Shown: piece by piece, positions 3-8,493 of the stretch
Layout: the number at the start of each line of letters is the position of its first letter
Numbering within the stretch: position 1 is the first letter of the stretch
NCBI RefSeq assembly: GCF_000055945.1
Contig: NC_008011.1
Location: 925,501-989,500 of the forward strand
From: Lawsonia intracellularis PHE/MN1-00
GTDB lineage: Bacteria; Desulfobacterota; Desulfovibrionia; Desulfovibrionales; Desulfovibrionaceae
DNA: 64,000 nucleotides
Direction: 5' to 3'
Position numbers and translations under genes: made by a program
The notes under the pieces: model-generated
Seen by the model: only the letters and a program-made list of their open reading frames with translations
The model's database searches: none
Told to the model about the DNA's origin: nothing

Positions 3-686
3 GGAGAAGCCTCTTTTTTTTCTGTTATACCTTCTAATGTAGCTATACAAAAAGGTGGAGAGATTCTTTATGAGAACCAACTTCAAGACCTTACCCAAAA
101 AGCTATTAAAAACGTATACCCAATGTTAGCTTCTCATGGAGAACTCTCAGATTACCGTATCCCAGCATATATTTTTATTCCTCAAAAAGGTCAATATGTA
201 GAAGTAGTACTACCTACTATTTCTCCTAAGAGATTGTCTCTACAGTTTGTTTTAAAAGATATTGATGGAACTGTATTACGTCAATATACTGGCACTGTGC
301 TTTTAAGCGTTTGGCAGCCTGTCCCTTCAGTTGGGAAACCTCTAAATAGAGGTGATTATGTAAATCCTGAAGATGTTACATGGATTAATAAAAACATTGC
401 CTTTTTAAGAGATGATATATGGGATGGCAAAGGAGGTCCTTGGCAAATTAAAAGATCTATTGGTATTGGACAGCCCATCTATCAATCTGACCTTGAACCT
501 TTAGCTGTTGTACGTAAAGGAGATATTATAAAACTTAATTACAATAAAGGATCAATACGTCTTAGCGTTAATGTTGAAGCCCTTGAAAATGGAACACATG
601 GCTCTTTTATCCAAGTACGAAACTTGCAAAGTAAAAAAATAGTTCATGCTACTGTTGTAGATTCTAATACAGTAGAAATACGCTAA
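3..686 (+). CDS. flgA: Flagellar P-ring assembly chaperone FlgA (5' end outside window)
   Basis: Periplasmic chaperone that helps FlgI assemble into the flagellar P-ring. The reading frame is open from the first bases of the window, so the N-terminus and signal peptide lie outside it; the ATG at 123 is internal. About 227 residues are visible. The C-terminal half has the SAF/ChapFlgA layout: a 'GKPLNRGDYVNPEDV' segment, then 'IGIGQPIYQSDLEP', 'VVRKGDIIKL' and a terminal stretch with 'GSFIQVRNLQSKK'. It sits 17 nt before flgH and heads flgA-flgH-flgI-flgJ, which supports the name. Family membership is clear; the start cannot be seen. Confidence 0.9.
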   Translation, partial: GEASFFSVIPSNVAIQKGGEILYENQLQDLTQKAIKNVYPMLASHGELSDYRIPAYIFIPQKGQYVEVVLPTISPKRLSLQFVLKDIDGTVLRQYTGTVLLSVWQPVPSVGKPLNRGDYVNPEDVTWINKNIAFLRDDIWDGKGGPWQIKRSIGIGQPIYQSDLEPLAVVRKGDIIKLNYNKGSIRLSVNVEALENGTHGSFIQVRNLQSKKIVHATVVDSNTVEIR

Positions 687-703
687 CGTATTGGAAACCC
701 ATT

Positions 704-1396
704 ATGAAAAAATTACTCTTTACTTCAGGCTGTATTCTTATTTTAACAGGTTGTTCTGCTCCAAACAAAACTCCTGTTGTTGCTCCTCCTATAACACCTC
801 CTCCAGCATATGTAGAACCTGAAGACTCCTATAGTAATCCTGGCTCTCTTTACTCATCTGCTGAATCTGATGGTCTTTTTGCTGATACTCGTGCTCGACG
901 TGTAGGTGATATTGTTATGGTAAAAATTGTAGAAAATAATACTGCTAAAAATAAAGCAGATACAACAGCTGATAAAAAAACTGCAAATACATACGGAATT
1001 GATGCGTTTTTTGGTAGACAATATATTGGTGGAGGATCAACAAAAATTCCTGTAGGTAGTGTTGCTTTTGATACAACCTCTGAAAGTGGAACCACTAGTA
1101 CAGGAGAAACAAAACGTGAAGGAGCTATAAATGGAACAATTGCTGCTCGTGTATTACGAGTTATGCCAGGTGGATTATTAGAAATAGAAGGCGTCCGTGA
1201 AACACGTGTAAATAATGAAACACAGTATATTGTTATCACAGGACTTATACGACCAATGGATATAGAGCCAGACAACTCCATTATGTCAAATAGAATCTCT
1301 GATGCAAAAATTGCTTATTATGGTCAAGGTGTTCTTTCCGAGAAACAAAAACCTGGTTGGTTTACACGCTTTATGGATACCCTCTGGCCTTTCTAG
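704..1396 (+). CDS. flgH: Flagellar L-ring lipoprotein FlgH
   Basis: Outer-membrane ring protein of the basal body, 230 aa, the usual family size. It has a lipoprotein signal with lipobox L-T-G-C at residues 14-17, so Cys17 is the predicted lipidation site; a Pro-rich linker follows. Family motifs visible are 'LFADTRARRVGDIVMVKI' and, near the C-terminus, 'GLIRPMDIEPDNSI' and 'SDAKIAYYGQG'. It lies between flgA and flgI in the expected order and is probably co-transcribed with them. A long antisense ORF at 850-1281 is a shadow. Confidence 0.96.
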   Translation: MKKLLFTSGCILILTGCSAPNKTPVVAPPITPPPAYVEPEDSYSNPGSLYSSAESDGLFADTRARRVGDIVMVKIVENNTAKNKADTTADKKTANTYGIDAFFGRQYIGGGSTKIPVGSVAFDTTSESGTTSTGETKREGAINGTIAARVLRVMPGGLLEIEGVRETRVNNETQYIVITGLIRPMDIEPDNSIMSNRISDAKIAYYGQGVLSEKQKPGWFTRFMDTLWPF

Positions 1397-1441
1397 TAGT
1401 CTAATATACTAAGTATAACTCAATATCTATAAGGTAAACGT

Positions 1442-2581
1442 ATGTTATCTTCTATTATCAGACCTACTAAAAATTGCCTACTACACTTTATTATACGTTC
1501 TTCCTATCTTACATTATTATTTATTGCTGTATTTCATAATCCAGCACAATCTGTTCGGATTAAAGATATTGCAACATTCTCTGGTGTCCGTAACAACCAA
1601 CTTATTGGATATGGTCTTGTTATTGGACTCGCTGGGACTGGAGATAAAAGAGACTCACCTTTTACAGCAAGCTCAATGACAAATATGCTTGAACGTATGG
1701 GAGTTGCTGTCGATGCTAACAAAATTAAGCCTAAAAATGTAGCAGCTGTTATGGTTACTGCAAATATGCCTGTATCCGCAAGACCTGGGACAGAGCTTGA
1801 TGTTACAGTTTCCAGTGTGGGTGATGCAAAAAGCCTTCAAGGAGGTGTATTATTACAAACTCCACTAAAAGGTGTTGATGGAAAAGTCTATGCTCTTGCA
1901 CAAGGTTCACTTATCATTGGAGGATACTCTGCTGAAGGAACTGCAGCTAGCGTTCAAAAAAACTCAACAACTGTAGGCTCTATCCCTGGAGGAGGTATTG
2001 TTGAAAAAGGTATTCCTTTTGACTTTAATACTCAACAAAATCTAACACTTAATATGAATAGCAACGACTTTTCTACTACAATGCAAGTAGTAAACCGTTT
2101 AAATGCTACTATGGGAGGGAATTTTGCCTCAGCAATAGATGCAGGAACTGTTCGTATTGATATTCCGCCAGCTTATAAAGGAAATCTTGTTCCATTAATT
2201 GCTTCTATAGAAAATTTAGAAATTAATCCTGAATCTGTGGCAAAAGTTGTAGTTGATGAAAAAACAGGGACTATTGTTCTTGGACGTGAAGTGCGATTAT
2301 CACGTGTAGCTGTAGCACATGGTAATCTCCAAGTTGTTATCCAAGAAAGCGCCCAAGTTTCTCAACCTGGACCCTTCAGCCAAGGACAAACAGTTATAAC
2401 ACCTGAAACTAATCTTACCTTACAAGAAGAAACTAAAAGGCTCAATTTGTTAGAAGGAGCCTCTCTACAAGAACTTGTTGATGGACTTAATGCTATTGGT
2501 GCTACACCACGTGATATGATTTCTATCTTACGTGCATTGAAAGCCGCAGGTTCTCTCCATGCACAACTGGAGGTTCTATAA
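1442..2581 (+). CDS. flgI: Flagellar P-ring protein FlgI
   Basis: Subunit of the periplasmic/peptidoglycan P-ring of the flagellar rod bushing, 379 aa. A long signal sequence ends near residue 35, and the mature protein begins with the hallmark '[20 protein letters not shown]' followed by '[18 protein letters not shown]'. C-terminal family signatures '[12 protein letters not shown]' and '[19 protein letters not shown]' are present. The start at 1442 is supported by AAGG seven bases upstream. Export and FlgA-assisted assembly are known for the family; the role is inferred from this. Confidence 0.97.
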
Positions 2582-2585
2582 CCAT

Positions 2586-3269
2586 ATGATTAATCCTATT
2601 GATCCTTCTTTAGCTCAAAATTCAGCTGAAGAACAAAACTTAAAAGAAATAAAACGTAAAGCAGATAAAGAAATACAAAATCTTGATCCAAATGCTGCTG
2701 CAGCTAAAGAAAAAAAACTTCGTGAAGCTGCAGAAGGATTTGAAGCTATCTTTATTCAACAAATGTGGCAAAGTATGCGTGCAAGCCTTCCTAAAGAAGG
2801 TATAATGCATAGTCGTGAAGAACAATTTTGGCAAGGGATGTACGATCAAGAGTTAGGCAAAAGTATGGCTTCAGCTGGAGGGATTGGACTTGCTGATATG
2901 ATGATGGCTCAACTATCTAAAAAATTAGAAAATGCTAGTGAAGTTACAGCAGAAAGTATGCATCGAACACCACTAGATATAAAACCAGTTCCACTTATTG
3001 AAGAAAAAGCACCTCAAGAACTAAAACCTACTAATAAAAAACTAGAACATATCTATAATGGCGAATTAAGCCAACATAACTCTTCTATAAAAAATAATAC
3101 AAAACCTTCTACAACTACTAACACACTTACACCTGTTGAAGAAGCTCTAAATGAATTTTCTAAGCAAATAAAAACACCTTCTTCAACACCTACAGAAAAT
3201 ATAACATCTTCAGACTCAAATACAAAACCTCCTATTATATCTAATACAGTTACTATCCCAAAAAATTAA
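2586..3269 (+). CDS. flgJ: FlgJ-type rod-binding protein lacking a muramidase domain
   Basis: N-terminal rod-binding domain protein of the FlgJ family, about 227 aa. The core (roughly residues 40-110) has 'AAEGFEAIFIQQMWQSMRAS' and 'GMYDQELGKSMASAGGIGLA', typical of rod-cap domains. The C-terminal glucosaminidase domain of enterobacterial FlgJ is absent; instead there is a low-complexity Thr/Ser/Pro/Lys/Asn tail of about 100 residues. The ATG at 2586 is chosen because GGAGG lies upstream at 2569-2575; an in-frame ATG at 2559 would overlap flgI by 23 nt. A separate peptidoglycan hydrolase would be needed for rod passage. Confidence 0.85.
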   Translation: MINPIDPSLAQNSAEEQNLKEIKRKADKEIQNLDPNAAAAKEKKLREAAEGFEAIFIQQMWQSMRASLPKEGIMHSREEQFWQGMYDQELGKSMASAGGIGLADMMMAQLSKKLENASEVTAESMHRTPLDIKPVPLIEEKAPQELKPTNKKLEHIYNGELSQHNSSIKNNTKPSTTTNTLTPVEEALNEFSKQIKTPSSTPTENITSSDSNTKPPIISNTVTIPKN

Positions 3270-3414
3270 TTAACCTTAGACAAATAAGACCTCTTATATA
3301 AAAACTACTTTCCTCTTTTTATAAAGAGTAGTCCTTTATCTGGCATAAAAGCTGATTTGTAACTCCTTAGACAGGAGAAATATACCAATATTTATAACTA
3401 CTATTAAATATTAT

Positions 3415-3431
3415 TTGGTATAAAAGCTGCA
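3415..3431 (+). promoter_or_regulatory. Candidate sigma-54 promoter for the flgN-flgK-flgL operon
   Basis: TTGG, ten bases, then GC (GG at 3417-3418, GC at 3429-3430) resembles the -24/-12 element recognised by RpoN, matching YTGG and TGCW but not the central CAC. It lies about 100 nt before flgN. A similar copy (TGGCATAAAAGCTGA) occurs at 3341-3355 but lacks the -12 GC. Sigma-54 control of flagellar genes is common in related bacteria. This is a pattern match only. Confidence 0.4.
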
Positions 3432-3532
3432 TTATTTATAACTAGGCAAAAAAGATCTTTTTTTGTCGGCACAAAATGCCTTGTATTACATTGTTGAACA
3501 AAAACAGCTTTCTAATTTATAGGAGATTACTT

Positions 3533-4006
3533 ATGTATATGATCATACATGGCAGTCTTGATCGACAAAAAAAAGGACTTGCTCTATTACAAGAGTTATT
3601 AAATGAAGAATTTTCTTTATTAATGGATAGAAAGACAGAAGAAATTATGGCATTAGAATTTTCTATCCACTCTTTATTACGTCAGCTTGCTGGAGAAAAG
3701 ATTTTTATACAGAAACGGCTTAATGGAGGCAAACTTCTTGACTATGCAGAACTATTATCAGACCCTGAACAAACTAAAGCCATTAAGCAGTTATGGCAAA
3801 ATATTGACACACTTGAACAAGATTGTTCCCGTCAGGCCTCACTAAATGCAGAACTTTCACTTGCATTGCTTGATCAAAGTAAAAATTTACTTTCTTTCTT
3901 GCATAAAAATGTTCAACCTCAAGAAACTCTATCTACATATGGACGATCAGGAACCTATAATCACCATTCACGTCCTGAGGGCACCCTTCTTTCTGGGAGA
4001 TTGTAA
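3533..4006 (+). CDS. flgN: FlgN-family flagellar export chaperone (putative)
   Basis: Small, helical, Leu/Glu/Gln-rich protein of 157 aa, immediately before flgK with a 1-nt TAATG overlap. FlgN proteins are cytoplasmic chaperones for the hook-filament junction proteins FlgK and FlgL. Size, predicted coiled helices throughout (for example 'LLQELLNEEFSLLMDRKTEE') and position support the call, though the family is weakly conserved in sequence. The ATG at 3533 has AGGAG seven to eight bases upstream and is preferred over an upstream in-frame codon at 3476. Confidence 0.75.
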   Translation: MYMIIHGSLDRQKKGLALLQELLNEEFSLLMDRKTEEIMALEFSIHSLLRQLAGEKIFIQKRLNGGKLLDYAELLSDPEQTKAIKQLWQNIDTLEQDCSRQASLNAELSLALLDQSKNLLSFLHKNVQPQETLSTYGRSGTYNHHSRPEGTLLSGRL

Positions 4007-6123
4007 TGTCGATCAATACACTTTTCGGTATTGGGAAAAGTGCAATAGCTGGAAACCAGACAGCTCTAAACGTTACTGGTAATAATATAGCAAATGTTAA
4101 TACACAAGGATATTCCCGCCAAAGTGTACGCTTCGAAGATAGGTATGGACTTAATCAAACTCCAGGAATGCTTGGGCAGGGTGTCCATACAGCTGAAATA
4201 TACCGCAATTTTAATAGATTTGTAGAAGATGCTTACCTTAATCGTTTTTCCCAAAATACTCGATGGGACGAACAAAGTGCTATTATGAACTCTATAGAAA
4301 GCATTTTTAACGAATCAAACCGTACAGGAATTAGTTCACTACTAGGAGAATTTTTTAAAGGATGGCAAAATCTTTCCTTACGTCCAGAAGATGCAGCTAC
4401 TCGTGAAGCAGTGCTCTCTACAGCTAAAAATCTCACACAACTTATTAACGATGCAAAATCAAGTCTACAAAAAACCCAACAAGAAATGGATCTCTACATC
4501 CAACAAAGTGTTAATAAAGTTAATGAGTTAGTAGATGCTATTAAAAACATTAATAAACAAATCTCAGCAACTTATATTCCTGGTCAACAAAACCCTAATC
4601 AATTACTTGATCAACGAGATCAACTTGTTCGAGAATTAGCAAACCTGGTAGATATAGAAGTAAAGGATAAAGGTGGAGGAAATTTTGATATACAATTAAA
4701 ATCTGGACAACCTCTCCTGGAAGGACAAATAGGTTATACACTTAGCGTTGGGGGACAACGAGTTGAAAACTATTTAAAACAAGATTCAAAATATACAGGC
4801 ACTATAACCTCTAGTGGTTCAGACTCCCATGAATATTCATTTGAAATTATTAATCCTCCTTCTGGTGGAGCACCTGGGAGTATGCGTGTATCACTTGATG
4901 GAGGAAAAACTTGGCTTCGTAACGAAGATGGATCTGAACTTAACGTACCTATTCCTACTACGCCTGGTGAAACTATCAAAGTAAAAAATCTTGAAATATC
5001 TTTTGATCAAGATCCTTCGCAATTAGTTTCAGGAGACAGGTTTGATGTTATTCCAAAAACAGGTTTATACTGGAATTCACCCACAAGACCTCCGATCAAT
5101 ATTACTCCCCAAACACTAAATGATGGTACAGAAAATACAGGGCGTCTCACTGGAGGAAAACTTACTGCATATTTTAGTACTCGTGATTATAATGCAGGAA
5201 GATATATTGATAAACTTGATGCATTAGCAAACTCTATTGTATGGGAAGTAAACCGAATCCACAGTCAAGGTGCTGGAGAACAAAAAATGACTTACTCTTT
5301 AGGGAGTAGTCAAGTAAATCGTACAGATGTACCACTGGGAACATCTCAATCTGGTCTTGCCTATGGAAACCGTCTTACAACTGGGAACTTATCATTCCAA
5401 ATCTATGATGAAAATGGAAAACCTTTACCTGTAGGCACACCTCCAAATGGAATCCCAGAATCTTTAGATCTTGATCCAGGTACGCCTGGAGTTCAAAACT
5501 TTGATCCTTCAATTCATAGTCTTGAAGATCTAGTTAATGCCATTAACCACCCTAATAACTATGGTGAATTTATGAAAGCTTCTATTGTTAATGGAAGTCT
5601 CCAACTTACCAGTCGTCCTGGAACATCATTTGCAGCAAAAACAGATACAACAGGTTTACTTGCAGCCCTTGGAATCAATACTTTTTTCCAAGGTTCAGAT
5701 GCTACAGATATGGCTATAAAACCTGATGTTATTCAAAATACAAATTTTATTAATGCTGGAAAGGTTAATGCTAATGGTGAAGTTTCTACAGGTGATAATA
5801 GTATAGCTAAAGAACTTGCTGACCTTGCTACAAAAGAAGTAACAATTTCTACTGGATGGGAAACTACACACCAAACATTAGGTGCTTATTATGGTGCACT
5901 AGTTGGTCTTGTAGGATCTGATACTCGTACAGCAAAATTTAATGCTGATTATAATAAAACACTTTCAAACGAACTAGAACAACAAGCTTTATCTATTACA
6001 GGCGTTAACCTAGATGAAGAAATGACTCAGCTTATTAAATTTCAACATTCATATACTGCAGCAGCAAAACTCATTACAACAGCAGATCAAATGCTGCAAA
6101 CTTTACTTTCTTTAAAACAGTAG
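4006..6123 (+). CDS. flgK: Hook-filament junction protein FlgK (HAP1)
   Basis: Flagellar hook-associated protein 1, exported to the hook tip, 705 aa and therefore longer than the roughly 550 aa of enteric FlgK. The N-terminus has the rod/hook signature 'ALNVTGNNIANVNTQGYSRQ' and the C-terminus 'TGVNLDEEMTQLIKFQHSY'. The extra length lies in the central surface-exposed region. This includes an Asp-box-like motif S-L-D-G-G-K-T-W at residues 296-303, also found twice in the neighbouring FlgL. It has a good ribosome-binding site (GGGAG), overlaps flgN by one base, and is followed 9 nt later by flgL. Confidence 0.96.
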   Translation: MSINTLFGIGKSAIAGNQTALNVTGNNIANVNTQGYSRQSVRFEDRYGLNQTPGMLGQGVHTAEIYRNFNRFVEDAYLNRFSQNTRWDEQSAIMNSIESIFNESNRTGISSLLGEFFKGWQNLSLRPEDAATREAVLSTAKNLTQLINDAKSSLQKTQQEMDLYIQQSVNKVNELVDAIKNINKQISATYIPGQQNPNQLLDQRDQLVRELANLVDIEVKDKGGGNFDIQLKSGQPLLEGQIGYTLSVGGQRVENYLKQDSKYTGTITSSGSDSHEYSFEIINPPSGGAPGSMRVSLDGGKTWLRNEDGSELNVPIPTTPGETIKVKNLEISFDQDPSQLVSGDRFDVIPKTGLYWNSPTRPPINITPQTLNDGTENTGRLTGGKLTAYFSTRDYNAGRYIDKLDALANSIVWEVNRIHSQGAGEQKMTYSLGSSQVNRTDVPLGTSQSGLAYGNRLTTGNLSFQIYDENGKPLPVGTPPNGIPESLDLDPGTPGVQNFDPSIHSLEDLVNAINHPNNYGEFMKASIVNGSLQLTSRPGTSFAAKTDTTGLLAALGINTFFQGSDATDMAIKPDVIQNTNFINAGKVNANGEVSTGDNSIAKELADLATKEVTISTGWETTHQTLGAYYGALVGLVGSDTRTAKFNADYNKTLSNELEQQALSITGVNLDEEMTQLIKFQHSYTAAAKLITTADQMLQTLLSLKQ

Positions 6124-6132
6124 GGAGTAAAC

Positions 6133-7710
6133 ATGAGGGTTACCCACCAATCAATGTATTCTGGCATGATCAGTCAGATGAACAAAAGTTTATCTGACTA
6201 TATGGAGACTAATATACAAGGCGGTACAATGAAAAGAATAAACCGTCCTTCTGATGATCCTGCAGGTACAGCTAGAATCCTCTCTTATCGTGGAAGTATT
6301 GGTGGAATAGAACAATTTAAAACAAATACTGATACAGCTATGGGATGGTTATCTCTTGCAGATGAAACACTTAATCAAGTTTCAACAGTTGTTACTAAAA
6401 TTAAAGAACTTGCCGAACAAGCTGCTACAGATACATATACCCCTGACCAACGTGAAGCTATTGGTTTCCAACTCCGCCAACTTATGGGAACTCTTATAAA
6501 CCTTTCAAATAATCAATTTGAAGGCAAACATATTTTTTCTGGGCAAGATTATAATAAATCATCCTTTCTAGAAGGACTCACAGTCACAAGCGGAGATCCC
6601 AATGTTAACCCTAATCCACCAATGCAGGTTACTGGAACACTTGAAAAAACTGGACTTATTCGCTTTGAAAAAGATGAAACAATCCCTCCAGCAGCAGATC
6701 TAAATTATCAGTGGTCAACTGATGGTGGTAAAACTTGGCAAACTGCAACCATCCCTGCTGGGGGACGAGAAATAACTATAGGTGGTGCAGTCGTAACTGT
6801 TCCTGCTCCAGCTACAACAAATGTAACAGCATTTGACCCAGATAAACCTCTTGGAGATACTAATGGTTCCTTACTATATGTACGTCCTACAGCTATATAC
6901 CAAGGGAGTGATAATAACTCAAAACCTATTGTAGACAGATATGGCACTGTACCAATGCCTCCACTTAATACCAATACAGTAGGGACTTTTTCTGATAATG
7001 TCGTTGTAAAATTCCCTAATGGTGTTGATTTATCAACTCCTGGATCATTTGATTTCTCTTATAGTACAGATGGAGGCAAAACATGGACAGCAGGAAACTC
7101 TGAAGTCATTGTTTCTCCTGGACCACCATCAACTAGTACTGCAAGACTCATTCTGCCTGGTGGCTATATGGATATAGGTTCTGCTGATACTACAAGTCCA
7201 AATAATACTATTCCTCCTGATGGACAACTTATCCTTCGCCCCCAACGAACAGATCTTAGTTTTGAAATCATGGAAGGACAAAATATTACTGTCACAAATG
7301 TAGGAAAAGATATTTTTGGTGGAATATATTCTACAAATGGCTCATCTAATTTGGAACCTATGTTTGGACAAAATGATGGACGTAATTTATTTGAAACAGT
7401 TGGAAATCTTATTGCGTACACTGAAACAAATAATCAAGAAGGCATTGCAAACGCCCTTAAAGATCTTGAATTAGCACAAAAAAATATCCTAACTCAAGCT
7501 GCACGTATTGGAGGTAAAGAAAACCGTCTTGAAATCACAAAAGAAGCTCTTGATACAAATAAATATGATCAAACACAACGCTTAAGTGGTGTTGAAGATG
7601 CAGACCTTACAGAACTAGTAAGCCGCTTAGCACAACAACAAATGGCTTATTCTACTATATTAAAATCTTCTTCTATGATTATGCAGTTAAATTTAACAAA
7701 ATACATTTAA
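6133..7710 (+). CDS. flgL: Hook-filament junction protein FlgL (HAP3)
   Basis: Flagellin-like hook-associated protein 3, 525 aa versus roughly 300-320 in enterics. The N-terminal D0/D1 coiled region has 'MKRINRPSDDPAGTARIL' and the C-terminus has 'DLTELVSRLAQQQMAYSTIL', both flagellin-family hallmarks. The middle (about residues 160-430) is an insertion with two copies of S-T-D-G-G-K-T-W at residues 195-202 and 311-318, each followed by a beta-rich stretch. They look like duplicated surface domains. GGGAG precedes the start by five bases; flgK lies directly upstream. Confidence 0.95.
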   Translation: MRVTHQSMYSGMISQMNKSLSDYMETNIQGGTMKRINRPSDDPAGTARILSYRGSIGGIEQFKTNTDTAMGWLSLADETLNQVSTVVTKIKELAEQAATDTYTPDQREAIGFQLRQLMGTLINLSNNQFEGKHIFSGQDYNKSSFLEGLTVTSGDPNVNPNPPMQVTGTLEKTGLIRFEKDETIPPAADLNYQWSTDGGKTWQTATIPAGGREITIGGAVVTVPAPATTNVTAFDPDKPLGDTNGSLLYVRPTAIYQGSDNNSKPIVDRYGTVPMPPLNTNTVGTFSDNVVVKFPNGVDLSTPGSFDFSYSTDGGKTWTAGNSEVIVSPGPPSTSTARLILPGGYMDIGSADTTSPNNTIPPDGQLILRPQRTDLSFEIMEGQNITVTNVGKDIFGGIYSTNGSSNLEPMFGQNDGRNLFETVGNLIAYTETNNQEGIANALKDLELAQKNILTQAARIGGKENRLEITKEALDTNKYDQTQRLSGVEDADLTELVSRLAQQQMAYSTILKSSSMIMQLNLTKYI

Positions 7711-7815
7711 TCTATTACTAAATAGCAATAGTATGAAAAAATTCTATAATTAATTATCAGATGGTTTAATGATAGTACCTCTATGCCTTTTAATAATTAG
7801 TAAATGGAGTTGTCC

Positions 7816-8493
7816 ATGCTCATTTTAACACGGCGTGCAGGGGAAAGCCTATACTTAGATGATAACATACGTATAACTATTCTTGGAGTACAAGGTAAAC
7901 AGGTAAAAATTGGTCTTGATGTCCCTCCTGAAATGAATATTTATAGGGAAGAAGTTTATCAACGTGTCAAAGAAGAAAATACATTAGCAACTACAATCAA
8001 TAATAATGATTTAATTGCAGCTGCTCAATTAACAAACAAAGAAGAAATAATAATAGACACTAGATTAGGACAACAAACTATTGAACCTGAAAAAATTATT
8101 AATTTCCCTCAAGGATTAATAGGTTTTGAAAATAAACAAAAATTTATACTATTACAAATTCAACCAGCATCACCATTTATTATCTTACAAAGTATTGATA
8201 ACCCTAAGCTTGGTTTACTTGTAGCAGATCCATATAGTTTTATAAAACACTACACTGTTCAACTTAATGATACAGAAAAAACTATTCTACAATCAGAAGT
8301 ACACAACTTAGCTATATTAGTTACAATGACTATTCCTAAAGGGAAACCAGATCTTGCAAGACTCAATCTTACAGGGCCAATCCTCATAAACTATGATACC
8401 AAAATAGGCCTTCAAGTCCCACAAACTAATTTAGAAACAACAAGTCATGTTTATCTATATCACCCTGGGGAAGAACCAATCCTCAACAAATAG
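7816..8493 (+). CDS. csrA-fliW: CsrA-FliW fusion: translational regulator fused to its flagellar antagonist
   Basis: One uninterrupted 225-aa frame carrying two normally separate proteins. Residues 1-58 are a complete CsrA: '[16 protein letters not shown]', '[11 protein letters not shown]', with the RNA-contacting L4, R6/R7 and R44 ('YREE') of the family kept. An Asn/Ala/Glu-rich linker (about 55-78) joins FliW (about 79-220), seen in '[11 protein letters not shown]', 'PFIILQSID' and 'LLVADPYSF'. CsrA is known to repress flagellin translation and FliW to bind and inhibit CsrA. The start at 7816 is canonical for CsrA and has GGAG six bases upstream; an ATG at 7804 overlaps that site. It is the last gene after flgL. 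Confidence 0.92.

What the first reader, a model, noticed from the sequence alone, without database searches (positions are those of the whole stretch)
7816..8493. CsrA fused in one polypeptide to its protein antagonist FliW
The frame is continuous with a complete CsrA (RNA-binding L4, R6/R7, R44 kept) and a full-length FliW joined by a roughly 20-residue linker. In known systems (Bacillus, Campylobacter) FliW is a separate protein that leaves CsrA when it binds flagellin, so the stoichiometry can change. A fusion fixes it at 1:1 and places the inhibitor in cis. Flagellin may then control RNA binding by moving FliW on a tether, or CsrA might be kept constitutively damped. A self-contained flagellin sensor-repressor would be a compact version of the switch.
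Basis: partly seen in the sequence, partly recalled or inferred. Interest (0 to 1): 0.8.

Follow-up and report, generated by a model that had tools for sequence, protein, structure and literature searches.

The report
Regulator CsrA fused to its antagonist
In the pig gut bacterium Lawsonia intracellularis, the RNA-binding repressor CsrA and the protein that normally comes and goes to switch it off, FliW, are encoded as one chain, which raises the question whether a well-known partner-swapping switch can also work with its two parts tied together.

Summary
Window 7816-8493 encodes one 225-residue chain with a complete CsrA domain (Pfam 1-53) and FliW domain (95-209). No in-frame ATG/GTG/TTG lies between codons 41 and 170, and the genome (Lawsonia intracellularis) shows no other CsrA or FliW match. 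The '20-residue linker' is the C-terminal extension that relatives' CsrA also carries.

Relatives suggest how it arose: in 79 of 80 unfused family loci held, fliW starts inside the end of csrA, in another frame, on the codon of a conserved Trp. Lawsonia lacks that start and that frame difference. The fusion is not unique: six genomes of a second genus have it, and five of a distant family, which show no flagellin match.

V51 and N55, which bind FliW, are kept, and one of two Lawsonia flagellin leaders carries two CsrA-type hairpins.

Best reading: a single-chain flagellin-homeostasis switch, with two FliW arms per CsrA dimer instead of about one. Whether flagellin can release a tethered FliW is untested; a permanently damped CsrA is the main rival.

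The parts
7816..8493 (+). csrA-fliW fusion gene, 225 codons plus stop
   Evidence: Open frame; CsrA and FliW Pfam domains in one chain; only CsrA and only FliW match of the genome at E up to 0.001
7804..7809 (+). ATGGAG: probable ribosome site of the fusion gene (GGAG at 7806-7809); also reads as an A-N-GGA CsrA-type motif
   Evidence: Sequence; function inferred
7816..7974 (+). CsrA domain, residues 1-53
   Evidence: Pfam PF02599 1-53/53; L4, R6, R7, R44 present
7966..7980 (+). residues 51-55 in CsrA helix 1, with V51 and N55, which bind FliW in Campylobacter (N55 also in Bacillus)
   Evidence: V51 and N55 present; roles from PMC7829508 passages
   Evidence: Aligns with the extension of 78-aa CsrA of relatives; helix 63-73 in the AlphaFold2 model at low confidence
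8032..8034 (+). codon 73, ACA (Thr), where relatives have TGG (Trp), which with the base before it forms the fliW start codon
   Evidence: Codons, alignment; in 79 of 80 unfused family loci the start at this Trp codon is in the FliW frame (78 ATG and one GTG)
8041..8490 (+). FliW domain, residues 76-225 (Pfam match 95-209)
   Evidence: Pfam PF02623; model matches FliW structures 5dmd and 5dmb
123..7710 (+). flagellar genes upstream: FlgA-type chaperone, flgH, flgI, flgJ-type rod-binding protein, flgN, flgK, and a Flagellin_N protein that is flgL by position
   Evidence: Pfam matches; ORFs; the name flgL is inferred

Best explanation
The gene makes a single-chain version of the CsrA-FliW flagellin-homeostasis switch. 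It most likely arose when an ancestral pair of overlapping genes (fliW starting inside the end of csrA, in another frame) was brought into one frame and the fliW start codon was lost. Proposed working: the CsrA parts pair into a dimer that carries two FliW arms. When flagellin is scarce, a FliW arm sits on the CsrA helix around V51/N55 and keeps the dimer off RNA. When unexported flagellin builds up, it takes both FliW arms, and the freed CsrA dimer grips two hairpins in the leader of a flagellin mRNA, one of them over the ribosome site, and stops further flagellin synthesis. Because one FliW is enough to inhibit a CsrA dimer in B. subtilis, the fused dimer should need two flagellin molecules to become a repressor. 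Shown: the fusion, no free parts found, retained binding residues, target hairpins, overlapping genes in relatives. Inferred: the route of fusion, docking in cis or across the dimer, release by flagellin, the two-flagellin requirement.
For: Single frame, both domains. No other CsrA or FliW match in the genome. Of positions at least 90% conserved in 80 unfused family rows, CsrA keeps 27 of 29 and FliW 35 of 37; V51 and N55 are kept. A flagellin leader (G000:C1:894211, locus L145) has hairpins TCGC-ATGGAT-GCGA at -50 and ATTC-AAGGAG-GAAT over the ribosome site; two such hairpins came up in 1 of 20,000 shuffles (one or more in 0.73%), and 0 of 52 window ORF starts have even one (these are first-Met starts of ORFs of 150 aa or more, not curated genes). 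The pair also stands before two flagellin genes of a second fusion-bearing genome, G086. FliS, flagellin and FHIPEP proteins are present. Three sampled genus mates without a flagellin match also lack CsrA and FliW matches. Fusion in 7 of 348 genomes of the order, 2 of 59 genera.
Against: The second Lawsonia flagellin leader has no CsrA hairpin, and of 20 flagellin leaders printed, 14 have at least one but only 3 have the pair near the start. The FliW part of the g39 fusions keeps only 148 of 185 conserved cells, less than any of the 80 unfused rows (lowest 0.89), so its contacts may have changed there. A rough tether estimate gives about 0.7-29 mM local concentration for 20-25 free residues at 1-4 nm (far wider, from nanomolar to 0.1 M, for 5 residues); set against the 9 nM CsrA-FliW affinity of Campylobacter (PMC7829508), a closed state could be very hard for flagellin to open. 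Five genomes of a distant family have the fusion without flagellin, so the architecture does not prove flagellin sensing. The AlphaFold2 model has low confidence in CsrA and says nothing usable about docking.
Confidence: 0.55

Rival explanations
1. Jammed switch: the short tether keeps FliW on CsrA almost all the time, so CsrA is constitutively damped and flagellin no longer controls it.
For: Tether estimate of about 0.7-29 mM for 20-25 free residues against a nanomolar free affinity (PMC7829508); reduced genome of a host-restricted bacterium; two FliW arms per dimer where one suffices (PMC6529632).
Against: RNA-binding residues of CsrA and the flagellin hairpins are both kept, which a dead repressor would be expected to lose; fusion-bearing g39 genomes tested have flagellins, some with hairpins. 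If the extension is rigid, the local concentration may be far lower (5 residues).
Confidence: 0.2
2. Neutral merger: the two halves behave just as a separate, translationally coupled pair would; the fusion changes nothing that matters.
For: In relatives the genes overlap (13-40 bases in the 79 loci with ATG at the Trp codon), so production was probably already coupled; joining the frames needs only a small net change.
Against: FliW can no longer diffuse away and the FliW to CsrA-dimer ratio is forced to 2; B. subtilis is sensitive to small ratio changes (PMC6529632).
Confidence: 0.15
3. Not one protein in the cell: a sequencing error, internal initiation or protein cleavage gives separate CsrA and FliW.
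For: One genome per species is held, so no second Lawsonia strain could be compared at the junction. An in-frame ATG at codon 40 could give a CsrA helix plus FliW product.
Against: No ATG/GTG/TTG in frame between codons 41 and 170; the same architecture in six genomes of genus g39, and three of their five distinct sequences have no ATG/GTG/TTG between codons 53 and 82 (the other two have an ATG at codon 71 or 76). Cleavage was not testable.
Confidence: 0.06
4. The FliW half has become a general cis-acting lid on CsrA that answers to something other than flagellin.
For: Five fused genomes of family f12 have no flagellin match and no FHIPEP match.
Against: Lawsonia and the g39 genomes tested have flagellins, some with CsrA hairpins; the f12 fusions lie on a separate part of the tree.
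Confidence: 0.04

Closest known systems
Hag-FliW-CsrA partner switch of Bacillus subtilis (PMC6529632, sections 7 part 1 and 10 read)
   Same: Same two families; CsrA residue N55 for FliW binding; two CsrA sites in the flagellin leader (PMC6070490 passage); overlapping, coupled genes
   Different: Separate proteins, fliW before csrA, about one FliW per CsrA dimer, FliW leaves CsrA; here one chain, CsrA first, two FliW arms per dimer, FliW cannot leave
CsrA-FliW of Campylobacter jejuni (PMC4894983 and PMC7829508, passages and one section)
   Same: Same families; V51 and N55; CsrA with C-terminal extension; flagellin mRNA as a target
   Different: Genes not adjacent; free proteins that form a 2:2 complex
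Overlapping csrA/fliW pairs of Desulfovibrionaceae (loci)
   Same: The likely ancestral arrangement; CsrA extension and FliW N-terminus align with the fusion
   Different: Two frames, fliW start inside csrA; two proteins
Geobacillus FliW-CsrA complex, PDB 5dmb (organism from PMC7829508)
   Same: The FliW part of the model matches its FliW chain
   Different: Crystal of two separate chains

Membership tests
CsrA/RsmA | CsrA profile over the full domain | tested here: met
   PF02599 1-53/53 and two NCBIfam CsrA models above cut-off
CsrA/RsmA | RNA-binding residues L4, R6, R44 (roles recalled) | tested here: met
CsrA/RsmA | Binds GGA hairpins as a homodimer | not testable with these tools
   Candidate hairpins found; binding not assayed
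FliW | FliW profile over the domain | tested here: met
   PF02623 1-117/122; NF009793 133.2 bits, cut-off 130; seven other FliW models in the table score below their own cut-offs
FliW | FliW fold | tested here: met
   Model against 5dmd and 5dmb, TM-score by target 0.84-0.88; FliW region high confidence
FliW | Binds flagellin and CsrA in turn | not testable with these tools
   Contact residues V51/N55 of CsrA kept; no assay
FliW-CsrA partner-switching system | CsrA and FliW are separate polypeptides that part company | tested here: not met
   One open frame, no internal start for a complete FliW; cleavage after translation not testable
FliW-CsrA partner-switching system | CsrA sites in a flagellin leader, one over the ribosome site | tested here: met
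   L145, 1 of 2 Lawsonia flagellin genes; binding not assayed
FliW-CsrA partner-switching system | CsrA with C-terminal extension and N55 | tested here: met

The most novel reading that the evidence does not exclude
Fusing FliW to CsrA creates a one-component, ligand-gated translational repressor: a CsrA dimer with two covalent lids that must both be lifted, so that two ligand molecules are counted per repressor. This form arose more than once, and in a lineage without flagella the lid has been re-tuned to a ligand other than flagellin.
Probability: 0.2. Interest if true: 0.8.

Novelty: new variant of a known kind. Interest (0 to 1): 0.55.

Why it matters
The accepted model of flagellin homeostasis rests on FliW moving between two partners and on a strict ratio of free proteins. 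Natural fusions test both ideas directly: if the fused protein still answers to flagellin, dissociation of FliW is not needed and release can happen on a tether; if not, the fusion is a natural loss of the feedback in flagellated bacteria. Fusions in genomes without a flagellin match make it testable whether FliW has another ligand.

Tried and rejected
Considered and rejected: (1) a new 20-residue linker: the stretch is the CsrA C-terminal extension of relatives. (2) Fusions in Halodesulfovibrio, Ca. Desulfovibrio intestinavium and Mailhella, as the spans might suggest: the two genes lie in different frames. (3) G634 as a sixth f12 fusion, suggested by equal open-frame lengths: there is a TAG between the parts. 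(4) Two independent origins within Desulfovibrionaceae: the quick tree separates Lawsonia from g39, but a tree that holds them together scores 8.2 log units better and is not rejected (p-AU 0.712), so one origin there is possible. (6) A printed description of the fusion: the listings (40 of 49 papers shown; 12 of 39 shown) named none, nor did the passages opened (PMC13407953, PMC7652899, PMC7829508, PMC6529632, PMC6070490, PMC4682653); not every listed paper was opened. The legend of Fig. 3a of PMC4894983 lists Lawsonia intracellularis in a csrA/fliW gene-context drawing; the figure is not held and may well show it. The two PNAS 2016 papers on FliW-CsrA are not held.

Limits: rows beyond the printed part were not seen. 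The 80 unfused rows are the distinct ones among loci held, chosen by the tools as best matches, not a random sample of the 206 of 247 family genomes with FliW. One search used E 1e-30, so more distant fusions could be missed. Only 3 of the 5 f12 fusion genomes are over 90% complete (99, 97, 93; the others 73 and 72), which weakens absence of flagellin in those two. The tether estimate is a rough polymer formula; its Hill values for weak closure are artefacts of the scan range.

Full report
Observation. The frame at 7816-8493 is a single chain of 225 residues. Pfam finds CsrA at 1-53 and FliW at 95-209; two NCBIfam CsrA models and one FliW model pass their cut-offs. The window lies in contig C1 (1,457,619 bases) of a 1,719,014-base genome in 4 contigs. 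A 4,000-base stretch of contig C4 is 100% identical to two plasmid records of Lawsonia intracellularis, and the sizes of the three contigs seen agree with strain PHE/MN1-00 as I recall them. The genome shows one CsrA match and one FliW match at E up to 0.001, both in this frame.

Junction. After codon 1 the only in-frame ATG/GTG/TTG codons are 40 and 171, and the two other frames hold several stops across the junction. A complete FliW with its own start would need an unusual initiation codon. FliW similarity to separate FliW begins at about residue 76-78, so the two proteins abut.

How it arose. Among the loci held there are 80 distinct unfused Desulfovibrionaceae rows. In 79 of them a start codon on the codon of a conserved tryptophan of csrA (A|TGG; GTG in one, L075) lies in the open frame of FliW, which is frame +2 relative to csrA. 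The exception, L011, has the ATG but its FliW match is in the other frame. Counting every ATG at that Trp codon (79 of 80, L011 included), the overlap is 13 to 40 bases, commonest 25. Some of these loci have further possible starts downstream, so the start used is inferred. Lawsonia reads TTA ACA where relatives read, for example, TTA TGG, so the start codon is gone and a net change of frame has joined the genes.

Distribution. Single-frame full-length matches: 7 of 247 family genomes in the printed rows and 7 of 348 order genomes at E 1e-50, in 2 of 59 genera: Lawsonia and six genomes of an unnamed genus, g39. Of the five distinct g39 proteins, three have no ATG/GTG/TTG between codons 53 and 82; the other two have an ATG at codon 71 or 76. 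In the phylum sample of 395 genomes at E 1e-30, three further stop-free spans appear, all in family f12, besides nine spans with one or two stops inside. In the 29 genomes of that order five are stop-free (G353, G532, G726, G727 of genus g65, and G653 of g267). As I read them, only one of the five f12 chains begins with ATG; the others begin GTG, GTG, TTG and CTG. The tree needs four changes of state in all, and its well-supported branches force two. Lawsonia and g39 may share one origin. Most simply, the fusion arose at least twice.

Function of the parts. Among positions at least 90% conserved in the 80 unfused rows, Lawsonia keeps 27 of 29 in CsrA and 35 of 37 in FliW, within the range of the unfused rows. 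The five g39 rows keep 126 of 145 cells in CsrA and only 148 of 185 in FliW, below any single unfused row for FliW. The f12 rows, against 15 unfused rows of their order, keep 109 of 115 and 136 of 145. N55 is present in all 80 unfused and all 11 fused rows; V51 is kept in Lawsonia and g39, but is Leu in the five f12 rows. V51 and N55 are the residues whose change weakens FliW binding in Campylobacter (PMC7829508, passages). The FliW part of the AlphaFold2 model is confident and matches 5dmd/5dmb; the CsrA part is not.

Target. Lawsonia has two flagellin genes plus the flgL-type gene in the Flagellin_N search. The leader of the one at C1:894211 carries two A-N-GGA-N hexaloop hairpins, at -50 and over the ribosome site at -11. 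In 20,000 dinucleotide shuffles two or more occurred once, one or more in 0.73%, and none of 52 window ORF starts has one. Of 20 flagellin leaders printed (Lawsonia, four g39 genomes and two unfused Halodesulfovibrio genomes), 14 have at least one hairpin and 3 have the pair near the start: this one and two of the g39 genome G086. The other Lawsonia flagellin (C1:701970) has no such hairpin and instead a sigma-54-like sequence, as do four g39 leaders, one of which also has a weak distant hairpin (promoter consensus recalled).

Mechanism. In B. subtilis, cells hold about 9,000 FliW and 8,000 CsrA dimers, the pair is translationally coupled, and one FliW inhibits a dimer (PMC6529632, sections 7 part 1 and 10). 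A fused dimer carries two FliW, so repression should need both to be taken by flagellin. In a simple two-arm model this raises the flagellin needed and sharpens the response only slightly (Hill about 1.2 against 1.0). The same sketch shows the difficulty: if cis docking is as tight as the free complex, and the joint is flexible, flagellin must overcome a very large local concentration. Either the closed state is strained, or flagellin acts on the closed form, or the switch is jammed. I put 0.55 on a working switch and 0.2 on a jammed one.

Counter-evidence and side finding. The five f12 fusions lie in genomes without a flagellin match (0 of 5) and without FHIPEP (0 of 5), FliS being absent in the three tested; two of the five are only 72-73% complete. 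Of the other 24 genomes of that order 16 have flagellin, and 8 do not. So FliW fused to CsrA can be kept without flagellin. In contrast, three sampled genus mates of Lawsonia without a flagellin match have no CsrA or FliW match either.

Verdict. A real, conserved and recurrent variant of a known switch. It is probably visible already in databases and perhaps in Fig. 3a of PMC4894983 (legend and section 10 seen), but no text describing it turned up in the listings or in the passages opened.

Noticed in passing
G353, G532, G726, G727, G653 (loci L109, L108, L121, L123, L107): CsrA-FliW fusions in a distant family, in genomes with no flagellin and no FHIPEP match; two of the five genomes are only 72-73% complete.
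   Followed up: partly
80 unfused Desulfovibrionaceae rows among L003-L106: A start codon for fliW sits on a conserved Trp codon of csrA, in the FliW frame, in 79 of 80 rows; the overlap may hold the Trp and the start codon in place together.
   Followed up: yes
L145 and L153 (own genome, outside the window): Two Lawsonia flagellin genes of different type: one with two CsrA hairpins, one with a sigma-54-like promoter and no hairpin; g39 genomes show similar types.
   Followed up: partly
G006, G047, G073 (same genus as the window's genome): All three lack CsrA, FliW and flagellin matches; G047 and G073 keep one FHIPEP protein, probably of a non-flagellar type III system. G073 is 84% complete.
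   Followed up: partly
window 7804-7809: The probable ribosome site of the fusion gene reads ATGGAG, itself a CsrA-type motif; self-regulation is possible.
   Followed up: no
L110-L118 (nine genomes of other families of the phylum): csrA and fliW lie in the same frame, separated by one or two stop codons and a short gap: one step from fusion by a different route.
   Followed up: partly
G039 (locus L045): This fusion genome has a contig of 2,172,708 bases; its size fits Taurinivorans muris (2.2 Mbp, flagellated, cultured; PMC10507020 passages), but the five loci read, partly overlapping, have 46.1% G+C against 43.6% reported. Identity not established.
   Followed up: partly
L011 (G238): The fliW start is at the usual Trp codon but the FliW match lies in another frame: a frameshift in the gene or in the assembly.
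   Followed up: no
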